From positions 1 through 26,721 of the IMG/VR virus record IMGVR_UViG_3300023284_000090: 26,721 bases of DNA; one strand, written 5' to 3'. This document shows, piece by piece, positions 4,908 through 26,434 of this stretch (positions are counted from its first letter, which is position 1; each line of letters begins with the position of its first letter). The notes beneath the pieces are model-generated. The model worked only from the letters and a program-made list of their open reading frames with translations, was not told where the DNA came from and searched no databases. The position numbers and the translations under genes were made by a program. This stretch comes from a virus.

Positions 4908-6800
4908 TTAAGTTGAAGGATCTGCCGCATTAGGCAGGAAGTCGTAGAACATCATGAGCAATGTGTGATTGAACACGCGGTCGGCGCCGGCTGGAATATC
5001 CAGAGGCAGGGTGATAGGCTCATCCTGCTCAACATCCAGTCTACCATCACCCAGAGTTATCAACGGTACGTCCACCAATATGCCAGACTTGGCACCGGTA
5101 GCTCCCTTTACCATGGCGAAGTCCAACGTGATATCGTCGTTATTCCGGATGGAGGTTACAGCCGTAACACTAGCGAAATAAGCCTCCATAGAACCTTCGA
5201 CATTGAACTGACCAGCCGTCACATCGAACGCGCCAAGTACCGAGATGGCCTTGTTCGGGCTGATGTTGTTGTTGATCACGACAGAGAATTCAGTCACGAA
5301 GGCGAACAGAGCTGTTGGGTTAGCCCCAGCCCCGGTTGTACGATCTAGGATAGACAGCTTCAAGCGTGCCATATCATTCGAGGTGTTGAACGCATCCTCA
5401 GAAACCAGAGCTGGCCGTGTACCTGCCTTCAAAGTGGTAGGACCATCGATCGTAGTAGAGTCGATAGCCACCCCTGATACACTCACCGTGATCTTGTCAG
5501 CCGTAGCGAAGGTGAAAGTTATTTCATTTGGCGTCCAACCTTCTAGGTACTCAGCCTGGATCTCAGCCGGCAACGCCTCATCGGGCGGCCCAAGCTGACG
5601 TTCTAGCTGGTAAGTGCGACGACGTTGTAGCGTGCTATCACTCTCGTTCTTGAGCACCCGACCAAAGAACAACCGGATAAACTCAGCCGTGTTGGCTTCC
5701 GTTACCATAGTACTGGCCGTCTTGTCAAGGGTCAGCACATTGGCAGCTATGGCGTTGATACGAACGAAACCGTTATTTGCGGCCGTCAGAAACTGGTTAC
5801 CGGCAGCACCACTTGTATCTCCACCGATGAAGATCCATTCACCGGGGATCAAGCCCAGAGTAGTGAAGTCCAATGCAGTAGAAGTCAAAGTAGGAAGTGA
5901 ACTACCACCAGCAGCGACCACATCAATGTCTCCCACAGCTCCTTCAAAGCCGACCGTGGTCATGGTAGCCGCAGCAGCAGGAGAAGCATCGGTGATTAAG
6001 TTCGTGCTCACACCGATTACATTGTTGGCCACCGTATCAACAAGCTTGAGACCGTTGTTGGCCACATCATTGTTGCCGGTCAGGAATACGAGATCACCAA
6101 CTTGCCAGGTAATAGCGTTGGCGTAGGTCAGGGTCAGGGTGAGTGCGGCATTGCCACTACCAGTTACAACCGTGGTAGCCGTGCCCGCACCTGTGTCAGT
6201 ATCCGTACGTCCCTCACGCCCACCACCGGCAATACCGGCTAGGGTTAGGAGAGAAACGGTGTCTACCACACCACCAGTTACGGCGGTTACAATGAACCGA
6301 GCATTGATGGTAGCGTTGGCATCAACTACCTCGGCTACATCACCCACGGCATAACTTGCACCACCAGCCACAACCACAGCAGAAACTGCTTTACGGCTGT
6401 CTACGGTGATGTCATCAGAAGTGGTCAAGATATCAGTAATCGTGAAGTCGGCGTTCTGATCGAAAGTACCCGCTCTCCGTGGCTGGCGGTCAACACCCAC
6501 ATCACTCTTACGACGGAAGTCAGCGAAGAAGAACCCCTGGAGTACGTCCGCAAGGTTATCCTGGGTAAGATCAGACTCAAACCCACCATCAGCGTCGAGG
6601 TCCACAAGAACACCTTTCTGTCGTTGGCGCCCAGAGTTGATTGGGTTTCGAGCAACGGTCGTAAATTCACCACCGAAACTATCGTAGCTGTTCGGCTCTA
6701 ACGGAATCCAATCGTTCGCGGTATTGGCGACACCGATAGACGTTTCCTCCTGATACCGAAGCCCCGTCACATTGGAGTCAATTTTACTAACAGTAACCAT
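4908..6800 (-). CDS. Major tail tube protein
   Basis: This 630-residue protein follows the tail terminator and precedes the chaperones, the standard place of the tube protein. Residues about 1-100 look like a phage tail-tube domain: GLRYQEETSIG, then WIPLEPNSYDSFGG, an Arg-Asn-Pro-Ile segment, GVLVDLDADGGF and DNLADVLQGFFF. It is much longer than usual tube proteins (150-300 residues). The middle part contains beta-rich Ala/Thr/Gly/Val stretches, including an Ala-Ser-Tyr-Ala-Val-Gly-Asp segment (residues about 148-154) of a type also present in the two capsid-adjacent paralogues, and a second Gln-Val-Gly-Asp segment near 233. These inserts probably decorate the outside of the tube. GAGGAT precedes the ATG, and stem-loops follow the stop. 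It could be read only as 'tail protein', but the order strongly favours tube. Confidence 0.85.
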   Translation of the reverse strand: MVTVSKIDSNVTGLRYQEETSIGVANTANDWIPLEPNSYDSFGGEFTTVARNPINSGRQRQKGVLVDLDADGGFESDLTQDNLADVLQGFFFADFRRKSDVGVDRQPRRAGTFDQNADFTITDILTTSDDITVDSRKAVSAVVVAGGASYAVGDVAEVVDANATINARFIVTAVTGGVVDTVSLLTLAGIAGGGREGRTDTDTGAGTATTVVTGSGNAALTLTLTYANAITWQVGDLVFLTGNNDVANNGLKLVDTVANNVIGVSTNLITDASPAAAATMTTVGFEGAVGDIDVVAAGGSSLPTLTSTALDFTTLGLIPGEWIFIGGDTSGAAGNQFLTAANNGFVRINAIAANVLTLDKTASTMVTEANTAEFIRLFFGRVLKNESDSTLQRRRTYQLERQLGPPDEALPAEIQAEYLEGWTPNEITFTFATADKITVSVSGVAIDSTTIDGPTTLKAGTRPALVSEDAFNTSNDMARLKLSILDRTTGAGANPTALFAFVTEFSVVINNNISPNKAISVLGAFDVTAGQFNVEGSMEAYFASVTAVTSIRNNDDITLDFAMVKGATGAKSGILVDVPLITLGDGRLDVEQDEPITLPLDIPAGADRVFNHTLLMMFYDFLPNAADPST

Positions 6801-7660: not shown

Positions 7661-8026
7661 TTAAACCTTTGTAATATCTTGAACTATGAGAGCCTTACCC
7701 ACAATCAGGGTTGATATGGCGCCAGCTCCGTCAGTCTGTTCAATATCGTAAAAATAAGTTGCAGGCGCAATGTCGGTATCGGTAACTGATGGAGCGAAAG
7801 ATACCTTCCCATTAACAGCATCTGTAAGAACTCCGGTGATAGTGAACTGTTGATTTGCGGTAGTTGTTGGGGTCTTCTCAGAATTAACCGTCAGTTTAAA
7901 ACTAAAACCAGTAATATTTACAGCCACTCCCGCACTATCTTGAATGATAAACCCTTTAGGATCGCTATCACCGCGTCCCCAGCAAATAGTCTTAGTGGTA
8001 TCTTTGGTTTTGTCTATGACTGCCAT
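7661..8026 (-). CDS. Probable beta-sandwich virion protein (BppU-N-like)
   Basis: This 121-residue protein begins MAVIDKTKDTTKTICWGRGD and continues with PKGFIIQDSAGVAVNITGFS, SFKLTVNSE, GKVSFAPSV and a final TLIVGKALIVQ. The pattern of an initial 'Gly-Asp' edge, a 'Val-Asn-Ile-Thr-Gly' strand and a closing hydrophobic strand resembles the N-terminal domain of BppU/DUF2479-type phage receptor-complex proteins. The similarity is weak. It sits between the long repeat protein and the head-closure gene; start and stop are joined as TGATATG with the upstream gene. Likely role: a virion attachment or display subunit; function not established. Confidence 0.5.
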   Translation of the reverse strand: MAVIDKTKDTTKTICWGRGDSDPKGFIIQDSAGVAVNITGFSFKLTVNSEKTPTTTANQQFTITGVLTDAVNGKVSFAPSVTDTDIAPATYFYDIEQTDGAGAISTLIVGKALIVQDITKV

Positions 8027-8027
8027 A

Positions 8028-10118
8028 TCAAACCCCTATGTCATTCCCAAGTTTTATAATAATATCTGCTAGACTTGGCACCGTTATACCAGCCGCACCA
8101 GTTGATCCATCTATCAGTATGCCAGCAGCTTGTAGAATTGGAATGAATTGTGCAACAAATGGAGGTACTGTGATGACTTGCAGTCCAACACCCGATTGTA
8201 TAATTAAAGCTAGAAGTTGAGCACCAGCGCCACTGAAAGTCTCTATACCAATACCAGATTGAGTAAGAGTTGTCAATAATTGGGCTCCGGCACCGCTGAA
8301 AAGTTCTATACCAGCACCAGCTTGAGCAAGATTGGAGAGTAGCTGAATCCCCGTTCCGCTAATCGTTTCCACGCCCACACCAACCTGAAGAAGCTGGGTA
8401 AGAAGTTGGTTACCGACACCGGAAGGTTGCATAACACCCACACCAGATTGAAGTAGCTGGGACAGGAGTTGAACGCCCGTTCCCGTTATCGCAATTGTGT
8501 GAGTGCCCACACCCGATTGAAGGAGTTGGGCAAGAAGTTGTATACCAGAGCCAGATGGCTGCATAAAGCCTACGCCGGATTGGAGAAGTTGCGCCAGTAA
8601 CTGAATGCCAGTTCCACTAAACGTTTGCACCCCAACACCGGATTGAAGAAGTTGAGCTAATAGCTGAACCCCGGTACCCGAAGGCTGCATGACGCCCACA
8701 CCGGCCTGAAGGAGTTGGGCTAGGAGTTGAACGCCTGTACCGCTAAATGTCTCTGCACCGACGCCGACCTGTAAAAGCTGGGCCAGTAATTGAGCACCAG
8801 ATCCAGAAGGCTGCATAACACCAACACCGGCTTGAAGTAGCTGAGCTAGCAATTGAGCACCAGTACCAACAGCAGTTTCTGTGTGAACTCCTACACCGGC
8901 TTGAAGTAGCTGAGCTAGCAATTGAACGCCAGTACCTGATGGCTGCATAACGCCGACACCGGCTTGAAGTAGCTGAGCCAAAAGTTGAATACTTGTACCA
9001 CTGAAGGTTTCCACACCAACACCGGCTTGAAGTAGTTGAGCTAGCAGTTGGACACCAGTACCTGATGGCTGCATAACACCGACACCAGCCTGGAGTAACT
9101 GAGCTAATAGTTGTACACCTGTCCCACTAAACGTCTGTACACCGACACCAGATTGTATAGGGTTTGATAAAATCTGAACACCGGTTCCAATAAACTTTTC
9201 TTCACCCACACCTGCTTGAGTCACATTCTCAAGAAGCTGAACACCGGCGCCAGAGGGCTGCATAACACCTACACCGGCCTGAAGTAACTGAGCTAGAAGT
9301 TGAATTCCGACACCACTGGCAGCAGGGGGGCCTGATGACGATATATAGGAATTCAAAAAAGGCTGACCCGGAATCATAAATGAATGATTACCAGCGAAAG
9401 CGGCAATATTATTTTGCCAATGTATTATACGAGTTATGGATGCTGCCACGGCAGCGGCGGCAACAGCGGGTCTAATAGGATATCTTTGACTTGGGTAATA
9501 AATATCTGGCGGATGAACGAAGTCCGTTAAAGTTCCTGACTCAGTGTTTACAGTTCCATACTTATCCGCTCGATTACGGATCATGGGCCGATAGGCAACC
9601 AAACCATTTGGGATAAACAAGGGACTGGCGCCGGAACCGAGAATTGCAGCCTCTGCGGCGCTCAACTCCCGATCCCACATGGCGTACTCGGCCATGGCGC
9701 CGACAAAGGCCCCCCCACCGGTTCCATTCTGTCCGATTCTATGCACGTCGGTGGACGAGATCGGACTAACCTCGGAACCACCCGACAGGTCTATATCCAG
9801 AACGCCGTCGAGATAGACCTGGACCCGCTTTGGAGACGCCCCAGCCTCTACCGTCAGAAGCACGTGATACCATTGATTCACGTTTAGCGTAGAGCCACCA
9901 TTATTAGTATCGTCTATCTTGCAGTTAAGGGTGTCTTGACTGGGCGAGTTGTCCCGCACGGCGAGCCAGTGTGGTTCCGAGACATCAGCAATCGTGGCGA
10001 TAGTCTGACCACCTGTGTCGGCCGTCGTACGAAATCGGACGCTAAGTGAGACCGCCGCAGAGTTCGGGTTAGCGAAGTGCGGGAAATCGAGCCGTGCTGA
10101 TGCGAATGTCGTCGCCAC
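8028..10118 (-). CDS. LamG-domain virion protein with 18 tandem 21-residue repeats
   Basis: A 696-residue protein starting at GTG (10118); no ATG lies nearby and AGAG precedes it weakly. Residues 1-170 form a LamG/concanavalin-A-like domain: NQWYHVLLTV near 81-90, VYLDGVLDID at 101-110 and AEYAMWDRELS at 143-153. LamG domains often bind glycans. Residues 171-268 are a linker. Residues 269-650 are 18 tandem units, each a 16-residue core (typically GTGVQLLAQLLQAGVG) plus a five-residue joint that tends to alternate between VMQPS and VETFS/VQTFS. Units 7 and 13 have a two-residue longer joint. Residues 651-696 end the protein. The repeat probably makes a long regular fibre or solenoid holding out the LamG head or binding it to the virion. 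Function is inferred; no chaperone or intramolecular cleavage domain is visible. Confidence 0.8.
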   Translation of the reverse strand: MATTFASARLDFPHFANPNSAAVSLSVRFRTTADTGGQTIATIADVSEPHWLAVRDNSPSQDTLNCKIDDTNNGGSTLNVNQWYHVLLTVEAGASPKRVQVYLDGVLDIDLSGGSEVSPISSTDVHRIGQNGTGGGAFVGAMAEYAMWDRELSAAEAAILGSGASPLFIPNGLVAYRPMIRNRADKYGTVNTESGTLTDFVHPPDIYYPSQRYPIRPAVAAAAVAASITRIIHWQNNIAAFAGNHSFMIPGQPFLNSYISSSGPPAASGVGIQLLAQLLQAGVGVMQPSGAGVQLLENVTQAGVGEEKFIGTGVQILSNPIQSGVGVQTFSGTGVQLLAQLLQAGVGVMQPSGTGVQLLAQLLQAGVGVETFSGTSIQLLAQLLQAGVGVMQPSGTGVQLLAQLLQAGVGVHTETAVGTGAQLLAQLLQAGVGVMQPSGSGAQLLAQLLQVGVGAETFSGTGVQLLAQLLQAGVGVMQPSGTGVQLLAQLLQSGVGVQTFSGTGIQLLAQLLQSGVGFMQPSGSGIQLLAQLLQSGVGTHTIAITGTGVQLLSQLLQSGVGVMQPSGVGNQLLTQLLQVGVGVETISGTGIQLLSNLAQAGAGIELFSGAGAQLLTTLTQSGIGIETFSGAGAQLLALIIQSGVGLQVITVPPFVAQFIPILQAAGILIDGSTGAAGITVPSLADIIIKLGNDIGV
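8169..9314 (-). repeat. Coding tandem repeat, 18 units of about 63 bp
   Basis: The DNA repeats with a 63-base period (69 bases for units 7 and 13), in frame with the protein. Most units differ at silent sites, but 8824-8856 and 8893-8925 are identical over 33 bases, 69 bases apart, which suggests recent local duplication or gene conversion inside an older array. Units 2, 3 and 15-18 are the most diverged, so turnover seems concentrated in the centre. Confidence 0.9.
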
Positions 10119-12406: not shown

Positions 12407-13405
12407 TTATGTGGCAGTCGGACCCTGAGGGAAAGCCACCGTCCAAGAGGTCATGCTAATTGTGGCGCCACTAACGATAGCCAAAGTGTTGAAGTTAAAG
12501 TCACCGGCCGATGTATCGGCGTGACCGTCTATGTGACTATTCAACGGCGTTGGGAACGAATTAGAGGACGATGCACGAACATAGTTAAGAGTAGCAGTCG
12601 CATCCGCAGAAGTATCATCTGCAATCGCGTTAGCCGTGCCAAGTGCATTCGGTGAATCATCAGAGGCAGCACCAAATGCCGGAGTTCCAAGATCCAGCGA
12701 GAACAATAGGGTACCAGTCGTTGCCGCATTCGGATCAACAGGCTGCGAACCAGACCGCCCTTCAAGCATACCGTCTGCGGTTCCCTCGTCAAGAAGGTCA
12801 AGCGCCGGATCAAGCGCCGCCTGAGCGAACGCGATACTGACATTAGTAACCAGTGTATACAGAACGTCGGGGTCTCCCCGGTGAACCGTTTCACTGAAGA
12901 ACTCTTGCGTCTCAGGTAGAGGATCTGCTCCAGAACCGTCCTCACCACGCTCCCGAACATTACCAGCAGCACGCTCCTCATCCTCGCCAGCGTATAGCGG
13001 CCATTCAGCCAACAGCATACCGTGTCGGGTTAATCGCTGACCAACCGTACGGGCACCAATCTGAACAGTACCTATTCGACCAGGAACGTGCTGTCCTTCT
13101 ATGTCTATAGCAAGTTTCTCAGCGAGCAAGTCAGCAAGAACGGCGTCAGAACGAGGCTCTGAATGTTCGGCCCACAGACTCTCGAATTCGGCAAGTGGAT
13201 CAGGACCAAGCTGGCGACGAAACTTAGCCAGAATATACTCATGCTCATCCTTGAAATGCATGTTGTACAAATTCTGGAGAGCCCAATCCTGGCCAAAGAT
13301 GGCAACGTCGGAATTACTCTTTGAGTAACGGCTAGGCTGTGTGAACGCCGCCGCCCAATCCTTGGAAGCCTGGTCAAGAGTTACAGTGTCTAGAGTTCGT
13401 GCCAT
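12407..13405 (-). CDS. Two-domain virion-type protein (unknown N-domain, phage beta C-domain)
   Basis: This 332-residue protein has two clear parts. Residues 1-175 are charged and mixed, with WAAAFTQPSRYSKS and FKDEHEYILAKFRRQLGPDP, and are not recognised. Residues about 190-332 (IAFAQAALDPALDLLDEGTA, MLEGRSGSQPVDPN, TGTLLFSLDLGTPAFGAAS, DTSADATATLNYVRASSSN, DFNFNTLAIVSGATISMTSW) match a module that commonly stands alone in tailed phages near head-tail genes. The protein therefore looks like a fusion of an anchoring or novel N-domain with a common displayed domain. AAGGAAAG precedes the ATG. It directly follows the head-tail connector gene. Confidence 0.65.
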   Translation of the reverse strand: MARTLDTVTLDQASKDWAAAFTQPSRYSKSNSDVAIFGQDWALQNLYNMHFKDEHEYILAKFRRQLGPDPLAEFESLWAEHSEPRSDAVLADLLAEKLAIDIEGQHVPGRIGTVQIGARTVGQRLTRHGMLLAEWPLYAGEDEERAAGNVRERGEDGSGADPLPETQEFFSETVHRGDPDVLYTLVTNVSIAFAQAALDPALDLLDEGTADGMLEGRSGSQPVDPNAATTGTLLFSLDLGTPAFGAASDDSPNALGTANAIADDTSADATATLNYVRASSSNSFPTPLNSHIDGHADTSAGDFNFNTLAIVSGATISMTSWTVAFPQGPTAT

Positions 13406-15640: not shown

Positions 15641-16540
15641 CTAAATCACAATCACCCTGGCCGGCGTGAAAGGAATAGCTTGTAAGGCCACACTCAGAGC
15701 AGCACCCGCCGCACCTTCATGAGTTATAGTACCCAAGAAAACAGTTTCAGGTGGTTGACCATTGTGACGGAATTCCACAGTGATAGTAGCATCACCTATG
15801 TTATCACCAGCTTGAGCCAATGTTAAAAGTCTCGGCCCTGCCGCCCCTTCCGACATTTCAATTTTTGGAGTTATACTTGGAAACATAGTTAATTCGGTAA
15901 CAGCTCTTGATAGGATAGCCTCAAAAGATCCAGGTGCAAAACTTAGAAGATCTTTTATAGTCGTACCTGTACCACCACCATCTGTAGTGGGGCTATTGAA
16001 AGCTGTTCCAAGAGGTTGATCCACTTCAGTTGGAAGGATTTCATACTCTCCAGGATCTTCTAATTCGATATTTCCAACACCGCTCCCGCCAGCAAGAGTA
16101 ACAATCCTGAAGGTTGTAGGGCGAGTAAAGGTACCTCCAGTTATAGTTAAGATATCATCAACAGCATATCCAGTACCAAGGCTACTCTTTATGGCCGTTC
16201 TTACACCAAGACGAGGTTTGCCCAATATCCCTCTAGCTGAATCTCTGGAAAGGCCATCAACCGTTACCACCATAGGGTCGATTACTTGAGCAGCGCCACC
16301 TGTGATACGACAAAATAATGTCCAACCATCAGCTCCAGAATCAGCCAGAGTAGTGCCCACGACTAATTCAGTAACCGTAGCCGCTAATCGCCATAGGTCA
16401 TTACCATCACCAGTAAATCGGCCTTGAGCAGCGCGTCGTGCGCCAGCTTCATCCGCAGCGAAGATAACCATACGGCGAGTGTTCCCCTTCATGTTACTGA
16501 AAGGGGCACTCTTAGATAATTCTAGAAGATAATTAGGCAC
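15641..16540 (-). CDS. Capsid-adjacent virion protein, paralogue 2
   Basis: This 299-residue protein starts at GTG (16540); the start is supported by alignment of its first residues (MPNYLLEL) with those of the neighbouring paralogue (MPNFIVAL). The two proteins share MxIFAADxAGARRAAxGRF, a TVTELVVGT segment, ARITGG/CRITGG and the C-terminal SEGAAGxRLLTLA followed by VEFRHNG. Residues about 118-196 form a beta-rich module with Gly-Tyr-Ala-Val-Asp-Asp, GGTFTR and a Pro-Gly-Glu-Tyr turn. The position just after the major capsid protein, and likely high expression, suggest a capsid decoration or cement protein. That role is inferred; no characterised homologue is recognised. Confidence 0.65.
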   Translation of the reverse strand: MPNYLLELSKSAPFSNMKGNTRRMVIFAADEAGARRAAQGRFTGDGNDLWRLAATVTELVVGTTLADSGADGWTLFCRITGGAAQVIDPMVVTVDGLSRDSARGILGKPRLGVRTAIKSSLGTGYAVDDILTITGGTFTRPTTFRIVTLAGGSGVGNIELEDPGEYEILPTEVDQPLGTAFNSPTTDGGGTGTTIKDLLSFAPGSFEAILSRAVTELTMFPSITPKIEMSEGAAGPRLLTLAQAGDNIGDATITVEFRHNGQPPETVFLGTITHEGAAGAALSVALQAIPFTPARVIVI

Positions 16541-16559: not shown

Positions 16560-17441
16560 TTATCGGAAGGTGCGAATTCGAGGTGGTGCTATAGGCGTAG
16601 CTGGGATAGCAGCCGTAAGCACAGCAGCAGCAATACCCTCGTCTACAATAGTGCTAACCAAGACAGTCTCAGCCGTACCGTTGTGACGAAACTCGACCTC
16701 AATAGCCGCATCTCCAATGCCGTCTCCAACGGTAGCAAGTGTCAGGAGCCGAGCACCGGCAGCACCCTCGGAAAGATCTAGAGAAGCTGTGAGATCAGCA
16801 AAAGCCGCCAGAGATGTAGTGAGTCGAGCCAGTAGAGAGTGGTAGCTTCCTTCAAGAGCCATCGTGAGATCAATGGTGGCTGCCGTTCCACCACCACCTG
16901 TTACAGGGTTAGCTGTAAGGGGTGTAGGAGCAACAGTATAGTCACCGGGATCGACCAATTCAATAGCGGTGATAACACCAGTTGATACGGTAATTACACG
17001 GAAAGTAGCTGCCCTGGTGAAAGTACCACCTGCCGCCGTCAAGATCTCATCAACCACATAGGTGGCAACGCCACCAGAGTTAAGAGCGATAGAACCCACA
17101 TGGAACCTATCAGTTCCTGTAATCCGACCCTTAGCAGCATCCTGGTTCAAGCCATTAATCTCAGCAACAATGGGATCAACTGTCTGAGCTGGCCCGCCTG
17201 TAATCCGAGCATACGCTGTCCAAGCATCGTTATCGCCGGCATCAGCTAGATCAGTACCAACCACTAACTCAGTTACGGTAGCAAGAGTATTCCAGAGTTC
17301 GTTACCGTCCCCATCAAATCTACCAGCGGCAGCACGTCGAGCCCCGGCCGCGTCAGCCGCAAAGATGATCATCTGAGTAGCAGCATCACCAAGGTTTCCG
17401 TAAGTGGCGCTTTCAGGTAAAGCTACAATAAAGTTTGGCAT
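16560..17441 (-). CDS. Capsid-adjacent virion protein, paralogue 1
   Basis: A 293-residue protein and the sister of the next gene downstream, with a high share of identical residues across the whole length by eye; they are clearly products of a tandem duplication. Shared landmarks are GARRAAAGRFDGDGNELW, TVTELVVGTDLADAG and ARITGGPAQTVDP, then the beta module (residues about 118-192, with VVDEILTAAGGTFTRAATFR and ELVDPGDYTVAPT), and the C-terminal LDLSEGAAGARLLTLA. It lies directly after the capsid gene and the strong stem-loop at 17475-17501. Likely a head decoration protein; the ATG has GAGGAT before it. Confidence 0.65.
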   Translation of the reverse strand: MPNFIVALPESATYGNLGDAATQMIIFAADAAGARRAAAGRFDGDGNELWNTLATVTELVVGTDLADAGDNDAWTAYARITGGPAQTVDPIVAEINGLNQDAAKGRITGTDRFHVGSIALNSGGVATYVVDEILTAAGGTFTRAATFRVITVSTGVITAIELVDPGDYTVAPTPLTANPVTGGGGTAATIDLTMALEGSYHSLLARLTTSLAAFADLTASLDLSEGAAGARLLTLATVGDGIGDAAIEVEFRHNGTAETVLVSTIVDEGIAAAVLTAAIPATPIAPPRIRTFR

Positions 17442-23240: not shown

Positions 23241-23262
23241 CGTCAAAAACTCCTTCTTGTCA
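23236..23262 (-). repeat. Translation-start repeat, copy 2
   Basis: Identical over 27 bases to 22914-22940. Here the copy also encodes the last residues of the large terminase (Thr-Arg-Arg-Ser-Phe-stop), so the same DNA is coding in this copy and mostly untranslated in the other. Confidence 0.85.
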
Positions 23263-24841
23263 TGCCGGGAACTTCCCAGTTTAACCGATATCTAGTTTGA
23301 TCGGCGTGATGGTCTTCATACGTATCAGGAACTTCATCAAGATCCTTTTCATCTCGGGGCATCGGTGGACACAGTTGAAGCCACCAGAAACATGTGTCAC
23401 AAACGAAAAACCCTGGATGCTCCCTAGACCCATCTGGGTTGGGGATGGCATTCTGAAGCTTAGTGCGCAGCATCTCCCAACCACGTTTTCGTGAACCCTT
23501 AGATTTGTCAGCCCTCTCCCACTCAATTCCAGCATCTTCCATATCATCCGCAGGACACCTACCCTGACGATCACTGAGCTTATTATAGATTTCAGTATCT
23601 GCCGGCCCTGGCTGTACCCTTGCTCGGGTTCCGCCGGGGCTCCGTAGTCCCCACTCTAACTCACGATCAAAGATGCCAGCTCCGATCTTCCTGGCCGCTA
23701 ACCGTACCCCTGTATTGTCCCCACCCGTAGTCCCATACCATTCATTCCACAAAATTATATCACCACGAACGTTTCCAATCAAGCGGCCTTGGATTTCAAT
23801 CGGCTCACCGTTGCTTTCCAGATACCAACCAACCGCAAACGGACTACTCTGCCCATGATCATAAGAACGAGTAATAGTCCATCCATGAGGAATTTTATCA
23901 ACGGGTATAGTAGGTAAAACATGAACATGTCGATCAAAAATGTCGTCAATCATTCCTCCCGCAGTAATATCCCAACGACCCTCTATCCAGGCTTGGGCTT
24001 GAGCAGGGTTGGCCGCCGCCTCTCGCACTTGTGTCGGGTACATAGGTACATCGTGGAGCAGCAGGAAATTCTCGGATAGTGTCCCATGAATAGCCACTCG
24101 TGGCATCTCTCCCGGCCGACGTACCACATGTCCTCGACGCTGGGGTAACTCGTAACGGCGCTTCACCCAATTGTGACCAGGCCCATATGGGTTGGTGGTT
24201 GATCGTATACGACAAGGTATACCACCCGTCGCACGACAACAGGACATCATCATCCGGAAGGCTTTGTCGTTCGGCCATTGTGTCAATTCTTCCCAACCAA
24301 TCCAAGGATACTCGTGACCGTGGTACTCACCATAGAAACGCTCGTCTTCCATGTGACGTAGCAAAAGCGCCTCACCCGTAGGCCAAACGGCTTGATAATC
24401 AGCTTTCGATTTAAGGAAACGGAAACCGGGATATAGCCGGTACATCCACTCCTCAATCTTAAGTACCACATCATCAAGGTCACCAAGCTTCTGACGAAAT
24501 AATACTCCGCGCCATGTCTTACCATAACCTTTACCTACTTCTTTCGCAAAGTCCATAATCAAGGTTAAAGTTTTCCCAGGTCCACGAGTTCCTTCATACA
24601 ACGCCTCGAATATAGGACACTCAAGAAATGAATACTGGCTTCCCGGCAATGGCATCCACACAGGGGTCTCGGTTTTCCCACTTTCGTATTTTACTTGGGG
24701 CTTCCACTCAGTAGACTGATCATCCGTGTACTCGCGAAGAAACCACGCCATCTCAGAACCGTCAGCTCCAGAAGCAACAATTTTCTTTTCCACGATTGTG
24801 AAGTCTCTAGCCACGCAAGTGCGCCCATTCAGCGTCGTCAA
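23243..24841 (-). CDS. terL: Terminase large subunit
   Basis: Up to 532 residues. ATPase domain: Walker A GTRGPGKT at residues 84-91, Walker B-like PWIGWEEL at 179-186 with the acidic pair E184/E185, and coupling motif STTNP at 214-218. Nuclease domain: Asp in RSYDHGQ (about D328), PGPADTEIY (D415) and the terminal DHHADQTRY (D514), the three acidic positions of the RNase H-like packaging nuclease. TerL powers DNA entry through the portal and cuts the concatemer. The longest frame starts at TTG 24841 and overlaps the upstream gene; GTG 24793 or ATG 24751 are also possible because no start has a clear binding site, but all keep every motif. Small genes follow immediately, with the portal about 0.7 kb further on. 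Confidence 0.93.
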   Translation of the reverse strand: MTTLNGRTCVARDFTIVEKKIVASGADGSEMAWFLREYTDDQSTEWKPQVKYESGKTETPVWMPLPGSQYSFLECPIFEALYEGTRGPGKTLTLIMDFAKEVGKGYGKTWRGVLFRQKLGDLDDVVLKIEEWMYRLYPGFRFLKSKADYQAVWPTGEALLLRHMEDERFYGEYHGHEYPWIGWEELTQWPNDKAFRMMMSCCRATGGIPCRIRSTTNPYGPGHNWVKRRYELPQRRGHVVRRPGEMPRVAIHGTLSENFLLLHDVPMYPTQVREAAANPAQAQAWIEGRWDITAGGMIDDIFDRHVHVLPTIPVDKIPHGWTITRSYDHGQSSPFAVGWYLESNGEPIEIQGRLIGNVRGDIILWNEWYGTTGGDNTGVRLAARKIGAGIFDRELEWGLRSPGGTRARVQPGPADTEIYNKLSDRQGRCPADDMEDAGIEWERADKSKGSRKRGWEMLRTKLQNAIPNPDGSREHPGFFVCDTCFWWLQLCPPMPRDEKDLDEVPDTYEDHHADQTRYRLNWEVPGMTRRSF

Positions 24842-26163: not shown

Positions 26164-26237
26164 GAACCGGTGTCAGAATGGCTATGTGCTAGGCTGCAAC
26201 CCTGGTTATGGGGGTTCGAATCCCTCCCGGTTCTCCA
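26164..26237 (+). tRNA. tRNA-Cys (GCA)
   Basis: Acceptor GAACCGG pairs with CCGGTTC; the anticodon stem CTAGG/CCTGG closes the loop CTGCAAC with anticodon GCA. The T arm is GGGGG-TTCGAAT-CCCTC. The discriminator is U, as expected for cysteine tRNA, and CCA is encoded. Confidence 0.9.
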
Positions 26238-26278
26238 TCCCCTGTCTGCCCGAAAGGGTAGGTGGGGGGCCAGAATTT

Positions 26279-26353
26279 GCGGATGTAACTCAGTGGTAGA
26301 GTGTGATCTTGCCAAGGTCAAAGTCGTGGGTTCGAATCCCATCATCCGCTCCA
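26279..26353 (+). tRNA. tRNA-Gly (GCC)
   Basis: Acceptor GCGGATG with CATCCGC; D arm ACTC/GAGT; anticodon stem TGATC/GGTCA with loop TTGCCAA (anticodon GCC); T arm GTGGG-TTCGAAT-CCCAT; U discriminator and encoded CCA. All four stems are intact. Confidence 0.92.
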
Positions 26354-26359
26354 AAATAT

Positions 26360-26434
26360 GCGACATTGGTGTCAATGGAAGCACGTTAGGTTTCCACCCT
26401 AAAAGCGCGAGTTCGAACCTCGCATGTCGCTCCA
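26360..26434 (+). tRNA. tRNA-Gly (TCC)
   Basis: Acceptor GCGACAT with ATGTCGC; D arm GTGT/GCAC; anticodon stem TTAGG/CCTAA with loop TTTCCAC (anticodon TCC); T arm GCGAG-TTCGAAC-CTCGC; encoded CCA. It lies six bases after the GCC tRNA, so the two are probably co-transcribed. Confidence 0.92.

What the first reader, a model, noticed from the sequence alone, without database searches (positions are those of the whole stretch)
8028..10118. LamG protein with an 18-unit, two-state repeat fibre
Eighteen 21-residue units alternate, mostly, between joints ending VMQPS and VETFS/VQTFS, giving a 42-residue higher-order period. Units 7 and 13, six apart, share a two-residue longer joint beginning with His-Thr. 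The core of Gly-x-Gly, hydrophobic pairs and Gln is unlike common phage fibre repeats. Such regularity predicts a rigid rod presenting a glycan-binding LamG head, with length tunable by unit number.
Basis: partly seen in the sequence, partly recalled or inferred. Interest (0 to 1): 0.65.

Follow-up and report, generated by a model that had tools for sequence, protein, structure and literature searches.

The report
Phage adhesin with solenoid-rod repeat stalk
This gene of an uncultured tailed phage encodes a sugar-binding-type head on a stiff rod of 18 near-identical coils, from a repeat family missing from the protein-family libraries searched that travels with a connector protein known from phage receptor-binding complexes, so it is probably part of how the virus sticks to surfaces.

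Summary
On the minus strand, 8028-10118 encodes 696 aa: a LamG/ConA-like domain (Pfam E 3.7e-15), 18 tandem units of 21 aa (units 7 and 13 have 23 aa) and a 46-aa tail. The 42-aa super-period sits in the joints. AlphaFold2 folds 12 units into an all-beta solenoid (pLDDT 86), so the predicted rod is supported for a monomer.

N-terminal heads are swapped (LamG, Ig-like, propeller-like), arrays have 5-35 units, and three joint types are shared. VMQPS-type joints avoid neighbouring each other. (2) A partner gene, 12407-13405, carries the domain of phage 7-7-1 garland protein, which contacts tail fibres (PDB 9rkv; profile E 1.6e-9). Searching with the partner alone recovered array units beside it in every new contig with enough downstream sequence. 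(3) In several named phages the garland-domain gene lies near another 21-residue-period protein; one in 7-7-1 was found in virions. (4) Units identical in protein have randomised codons, so this array is old, not freshly copied.

Best reading: a virion adhesin with a solenoid stalk. Virion location, orientation and glycan binding are inferred.

The parts
8028..10118 (-). Gene of the LamG + repeat protein, 696 aa, GTG start
9648..10091 (-). LamG / ConA-like domain, aa 10-157
   Evidence: Pfam PF13385 E 3.7e-15, 56.8 bits against cut-off 27.6
8169..9314 (-). Array of 18 units, aa 269-650, predicted beta-solenoid
   Evidence: units listed; AlphaFold2 of units 1-12, pLDDT 85.9, pTM 0.78
8868..8936 (-). 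Unit 7, 23 aa, long joint VHTETAV
8484..8552 (-). Unit 13, 23 aa, long joint THTIAIT
8031..8168 (-). C-terminal tail, aa 651-696, resembling those of L004 and G010
   Evidence: sequences side by side
12407..13405 (-). Partner gene, 332 aa: helical N-terminal part and garland-type C-terminal domain
   Evidence: model pLDDT 76.6
12422..12844 (-). Garland-type domain of the partner, aa 188-328 (phrog_3758)
   Evidence: PHROG E 2.9e-16; PDB 9rkv_A Foldseek E 9.2e-7 prob 1.00, VIA Z 13.2, profile E 1.6e-9
7661..8026 (-). Small protein just downstream of the array, phrog_1084, unknown function; a small beta-type protein follows the array in several relatives

Best explanation
The protein is a phage virion adhesin built as head, rod and anchor. 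An N-terminal LamG domain is the exchangeable binding head. The 18 units fold as an 18-coil beta-solenoid, 21 residues per coil (about 8.6 nm if each coil rises 0.48 nm). The C-terminal side docks it to the virion, helped by the garland-type partner encoded at 12407-13405. Shown: repeats, LamG match, family relatives, co-occurrence with the partner, the partner's homology to the 7-7-1 garland protein. Predicted: solenoid fold. Inferred: virion location, orientation, partner contact, glycan binding.
For: LamG at E 3.7e-15. Solenoid model, pLDDT 85.9. Array beside the partner in seven records first found through the repeat and, when searched from the partner, array units in all seven new contigs with downstream sequence, two of them near-identical. 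Partner domain matches PDB 9rkv_A by fold and profile; the 7-7-1 paper says garland proteins interact with short and long tail fibres. A 21-residue-period protein near the 7-7-1 garland genes, gp108, and garland gp103 were found in virions by MS. N-terminal heads differ while C-termini are alike in window, L004 and G010.
Against: No proteomics for this phage. Garland proteins sit at the baseplate in 7-7-1, but this cassette lies between head-tail adaptor and head-closure genes and its position varies between phages. The repeats of 7-7-1 and other named phages differ in sequence from this one. Four models of five have lower confidence, 67-80. Several garland-domain phages show no periodic neighbour.
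Confidence: 0.55

Rival explanations
1. A capsid or neck decoration (head fibre), working like T4 Hoc: C-terminal anchor on the head, N-terminal variable domains outward, used to hold on to surfaces or glycans rather than as part of the tail receptor-binding complex.
For: Gene position between head-tail adaptor and head closure; in L102 and L104 the cassette lies between portal and coat genes by eye. PHROGs files the partner domain under head and packaging. Hoc has a conserved C-terminal anchor and variable N-terminal domains. 7-7-1 has capsid fibres of unknown protein.
Against: The solved homologue of the partner is at the baseplate. In G005 the cassette follows what looks by eye like a tail-tip gene, and in Vibrio phage 367.14 the garland gene lies among baseplate-like genes.
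Confidence: 0.25
2. The array is chiefly an assembly scaffold or string that holds garland-type connectors together, and the N-terminal domain is secondary.
For: A511 gp105 dimers are joined by an extended chain, and what joins the Milano garland is unknown. The strict pairing of array and garland domain fits.
Against: The array is predicted compact and solenoid, not an extended string. Heads are large and exchanged.
Confidence: 0.1
3. Not a virion part: a secreted or host-cell-surface protein expressed during infection.
For: No virion proteomics for this phage; in G001 the cassette lies near lysis-like genes.
Against: The partner domain is a virion protein in 7-7-1, and the window neighbours that PHROGs names are structural.
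Confidence: 0.1

Closest known systems
Agrobacterium phage 7-7-1 and Milano receptor-binding complexes (garland proteins with tail fibres or spikes)
   Same: Homologous garland domain; in 7-7-1 two proteins with 21-residue period lie near the garland genes, one with a large N-terminal domain before a short 21-residue repeat.
   Different: The window partner has an extra N-terminal part of about 180 aa; repeat sequences differ; the cassette is not in a baseplate cluster here.
Mycobacteriophage minor tail proteins with internal repeats (Charlie gp22, Papyrus gp32)
   Same: 21-residue period upstream of a garland-domain gene.
   Different: Unit sequence differs, and Charlie's periodicity is only marginal.
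T4 Hoc head fibre
   Same: Layout as a lead: variable N-terminal binding domains and a conserved C-terminal end (PMC10385173).
   Different: Ig-domain string rather than solenoid; no homology to Hoc was tested.
Curli subunit CsgA and right-handed beta-helix adhesin domains (HMW1, EtpA)
   Same: Stacked short coils; VIA Z about 20 to each.
   Different: No Curlin_rpt match; Gln spacing 7/14 instead of Q-x10-Q; no sequence homology found.

Membership tests
Laminin_G_3 / ConA-like lectin domain | Match to the Pfam model above its cut-off | tested here: met
   PF13385 56.8 bits against 27.6, aa 10-157
Laminin_G_3 / ConA-like lectin domain | Glycan binding | not testable with these tools
   needs a binding assay
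Garland / fibre-network connector (partner gene 12407-13405) | Homology of the C-terminal domain to 7-7-1 garland protein | tested here: met
   profile E 1.6e-9, Foldseek E 9.2e-7, Z 13.2 over 127 residues at 3.2 A
Garland / fibre-network connector (partner gene 12407-13405) | Homodimers forming a ring that contacts fibres | not testable with these tools
   single chains only could be modelled
Curlin repeat (CsgA) | Match to Curlin_rpt PF07012 | tested here: not met
   no match at E <= 10 in 10 records, control rings in E. coli
Curlin repeat (CsgA) | Q-x10-Q kernel | tested here: not met
   conserved Gln at positions 5 and 12 of a 21-residue unit (motif)
Trimeric tail fibre / tailspike | Homotrimer | not testable with these tools
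   only single chains can be predicted here
Trimeric tail fibre / tailspike | N-terminal anchor, C-terminal receptor binding | tested here: inconclusive
   heads vary at the N-terminus and C-termini are alike within one lineage, which suggests the reverse, but anchoring was not shown
T4 Hoc | Hoc C-terminal capsid-binding domain | not tested
   no direct comparison made; used only as an analogy

The most novel reading that the evidence does not exclude
Garland-domain connectors and 21-residue-coil solenoid proteins are a widespread, undescribed two-part adhesion system of tailed phages, in which repeat sequences diverge beyond recognition while coil length and partner are kept. The 21-residue-period proteins of 7-7-1 and Atu_ph07, phages whose fibres are partly unassigned, would belong to it.
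Probability: 0.35. Interest if true: 0.65.

Novelty: new variant of a known kind. Interest (0 to 1): 0.5.

Why it matters
It links an unnamed repeat family to a connector domain of solved structure, giving a concrete handle on adhesion appendages of uncultured phages and testable candidates for unassigned virion proteins in the cultured phages 7-7-1 and Atu_ph07. The joint rules (M-type coils avoid each other; HT-type long joints recur) and codon-scrambled identical coils show what selection holds constant in a solenoid rod.

Tried and rejected
Curli/amyloid membership. Pfam, PHROG, NCBIfam and PDB sequence searches for the repeats gave nothing significant; the weak DnaG_DnaB_bind hit on the LLAQLLQ core is below cut-off. 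Tblastn of array proteins against cultured phages found no repeat match, but BLAST's low-complexity filter may hide arrays. A genome-contig scan gave 39 pattern hits, none with four or more family units in register; the pattern needs three conforming units, so absence from bacterial genomes is not proven. One viral scan was wasted by my spacing error. Positional orthology of units is clear only for L008/L018; window against L004 and G010 shows no diagonal. Handedness: the model aligns better to right-handed folds, but AlphaFold2 gave both hands for curlins depending on the alignment (PMC10192328), so it is not claimed. Literature searches found no description of this repeat in the held library.

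Full report
What is there. The window is a 26.7-kb linear virus record with a tailed-phage structural module: portal, scaffold, major head protein, head-tail adaptor, head closure, tail terminator, chaperones and tape measure are recognised by PHROGs; ORF 23243-24841 looks like a terminase large subunit but was not searched. ORF 8028-10118 on the minus strand has a LamG domain at aa 10-157, 18 units at aa 269-650 and a 46-aa tail. The regularity is far beyond chance. The 42-aa super-period is in the joints, not the cores.

Old, not freshly copied. Cores of units 4, 5, 7 and 10 are identical over 16 residues, yet use different codons. Over all unit pairs, codon positions 1+2 agree at 0.805, while four-fold third positions agree at 0.40, against 0.36 expected at random (codon-level test). 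Synonymous sites are therefore near saturation and the protein sequence is held by selection. G007 is the contrast (0.77 against 0.44), an array with recent copying. This argues against recent length change by unit duplication in the window phage, although relatives differ in unit number.

A family. A search with the protein gave one relative with an unrelated N-terminal domain, G001. Degenerate DNA patterns for the unit gave more in IMG/VR; about half of the first pattern's 24 hits were chance. The consensus is G-x-G-[AV]-Q-x-L-x-x-[LVF]-x-Q-x-G-x-G plus a 5-residue joint. Array sizes run from 5 to 35 units, some truncated by contig ends. Heads include LamG (window, L104), Ig-like and propeller-like forms; apart from LamG these names are by eye. 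Joint types VM.P..E.F. and long HT.... recur across phages. M-type joints are neighbours 3 times where 15.4 are expected over nine arrays, with 0 of 20,000 shuffles as low. I defined the classes after seeing the data, and the arrays are not fully independent.

Fold. AlphaFold2 on units 1-12 with 33 aligned segments gave an all-beta solenoid, pLDDT 85.9, pTM 0.78, about two strands per 21 residues; the five models ranged from 67 to 86. Foldseek against PDB was weak (best E 0.027). VIA-align gave Z about 20 to right-handed beta-helices at 2.7 A and to CsgA at 9.1 A. That solenoid reading therefore rests on the model and these structural alignments; I could not view coordinates. The BFVD search listed, with poor superposition, two proteins of Agrobacterium phage Atu_ph07. 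One of them, named Hat/HatR and 1438 aa long, appears to be the garland-neighbour protein that later showed the 21-residue period.

The partner. Gene 12407-13405 has homologues in seven of the records first found through the repeat. To test the link without circularity I searched IMG/VR with the partner alone: 15 contigs, nine of them new. L095 and L103 end just after the gene. L092, L100, L101, L102 and L104 have arrays downstream, in L096 the first unit starts at the contig end, and L098 has two units. L100 and L101 are near-identical, and the L104 array is short. The partner's C-terminal domain matches PDB 9rkv chain A of phage 7-7-1 by fold and by sequence profile (E 1.6e-9). The 7-7-1 paper describes a garland of homodimers interacting with short and long tail fibres, and the Milano paper relates garland proteins to T4 gp8 and A511 gp105, connectors of receptor-binding proteins. 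That chain A is the garland protein is my reading of its length and of the paper; a profile of the domain finds two genes in the 7-7-1 record, one of 141 aa like chain A.

Wider pattern. I examined 14 loci of named or deposited phages with this domain. The proteins with clear internal periodicity all lie within about four genes of it: Vibrio phages K354, 501E54-1 and 367.14, Papyrus, Atu_ph07 and 7-7-1 (two proteins), all at lag 21, and VSN-002 at lag 23. Charlie and RHph_N46 are marginal; Troll4, JacoRen57, KPP25, Rollin and LR797314 show none. The two large Vibrio phages are related. In 7-7-1, gp103 (garland type), gp107 and gp108 (21-residue period) were found in virions by MS. Gene numbering differs between the two 7-7-1 papers; mine follows JQ312117.

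Mechanism. I favour a virion adhesin: exchangeable N-terminal head, solenoid rod, and an anchor at the C-terminal side with the garland-type protein as connector. The rod would be about 8.6 nm at 0.48 nm per coil (general solenoid geometry, from knowledge). Heads differ while C-termini are alike in window, L004 and G010, which points to N-terminus outward, as in T4 Hoc. Where on the virion it sits is open: gene position suggests head or neck, the solved partner homologue suggests the baseplate.

Noticed in passing
window 15641-16540 and 16560-17441: Two adjacent ORFs between the major head protein and the connector genes look like tandem paralogues (similar openings MPNYLLELSKSA / MPNFIVALPESA); no search was made with them.
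   Followed up: no
window 4908-6800: 630-aa tail protein matching phrog_290 (411 positions) over nearly its whole length, so it carries a large insertion.
   Followed up: no
window 26164-26434: Cluster of three tRNA genes (Cys-gca, Gly-gcc, Gly-tcc) at the end of the record.
   Followed up: no
L111 9296-10318 and 10312-11739 (phage 7-7-1, JQ312117): Two proteins with 21-residue period near the garland-type genes; the first, gp108, was found in virions.
   Followed up: partly
L106 9398-11023 (Vibrio phage 367.14): Very regular 21-residue repeat of another type (GQAAIDEQPDELTASGALTNS) directly after a garland-domain gene.
   Followed up: partly
L014 1370-4831: Longest array of the set, 35 units with five long joints, in a 1154-aa protein.
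   Followed up: partly
L015 9430-11898 (G007): The one array whose units still share codons (four-fold identity 0.77 against 0.44 at random), that is, recent unit copying.
   Followed up: partly
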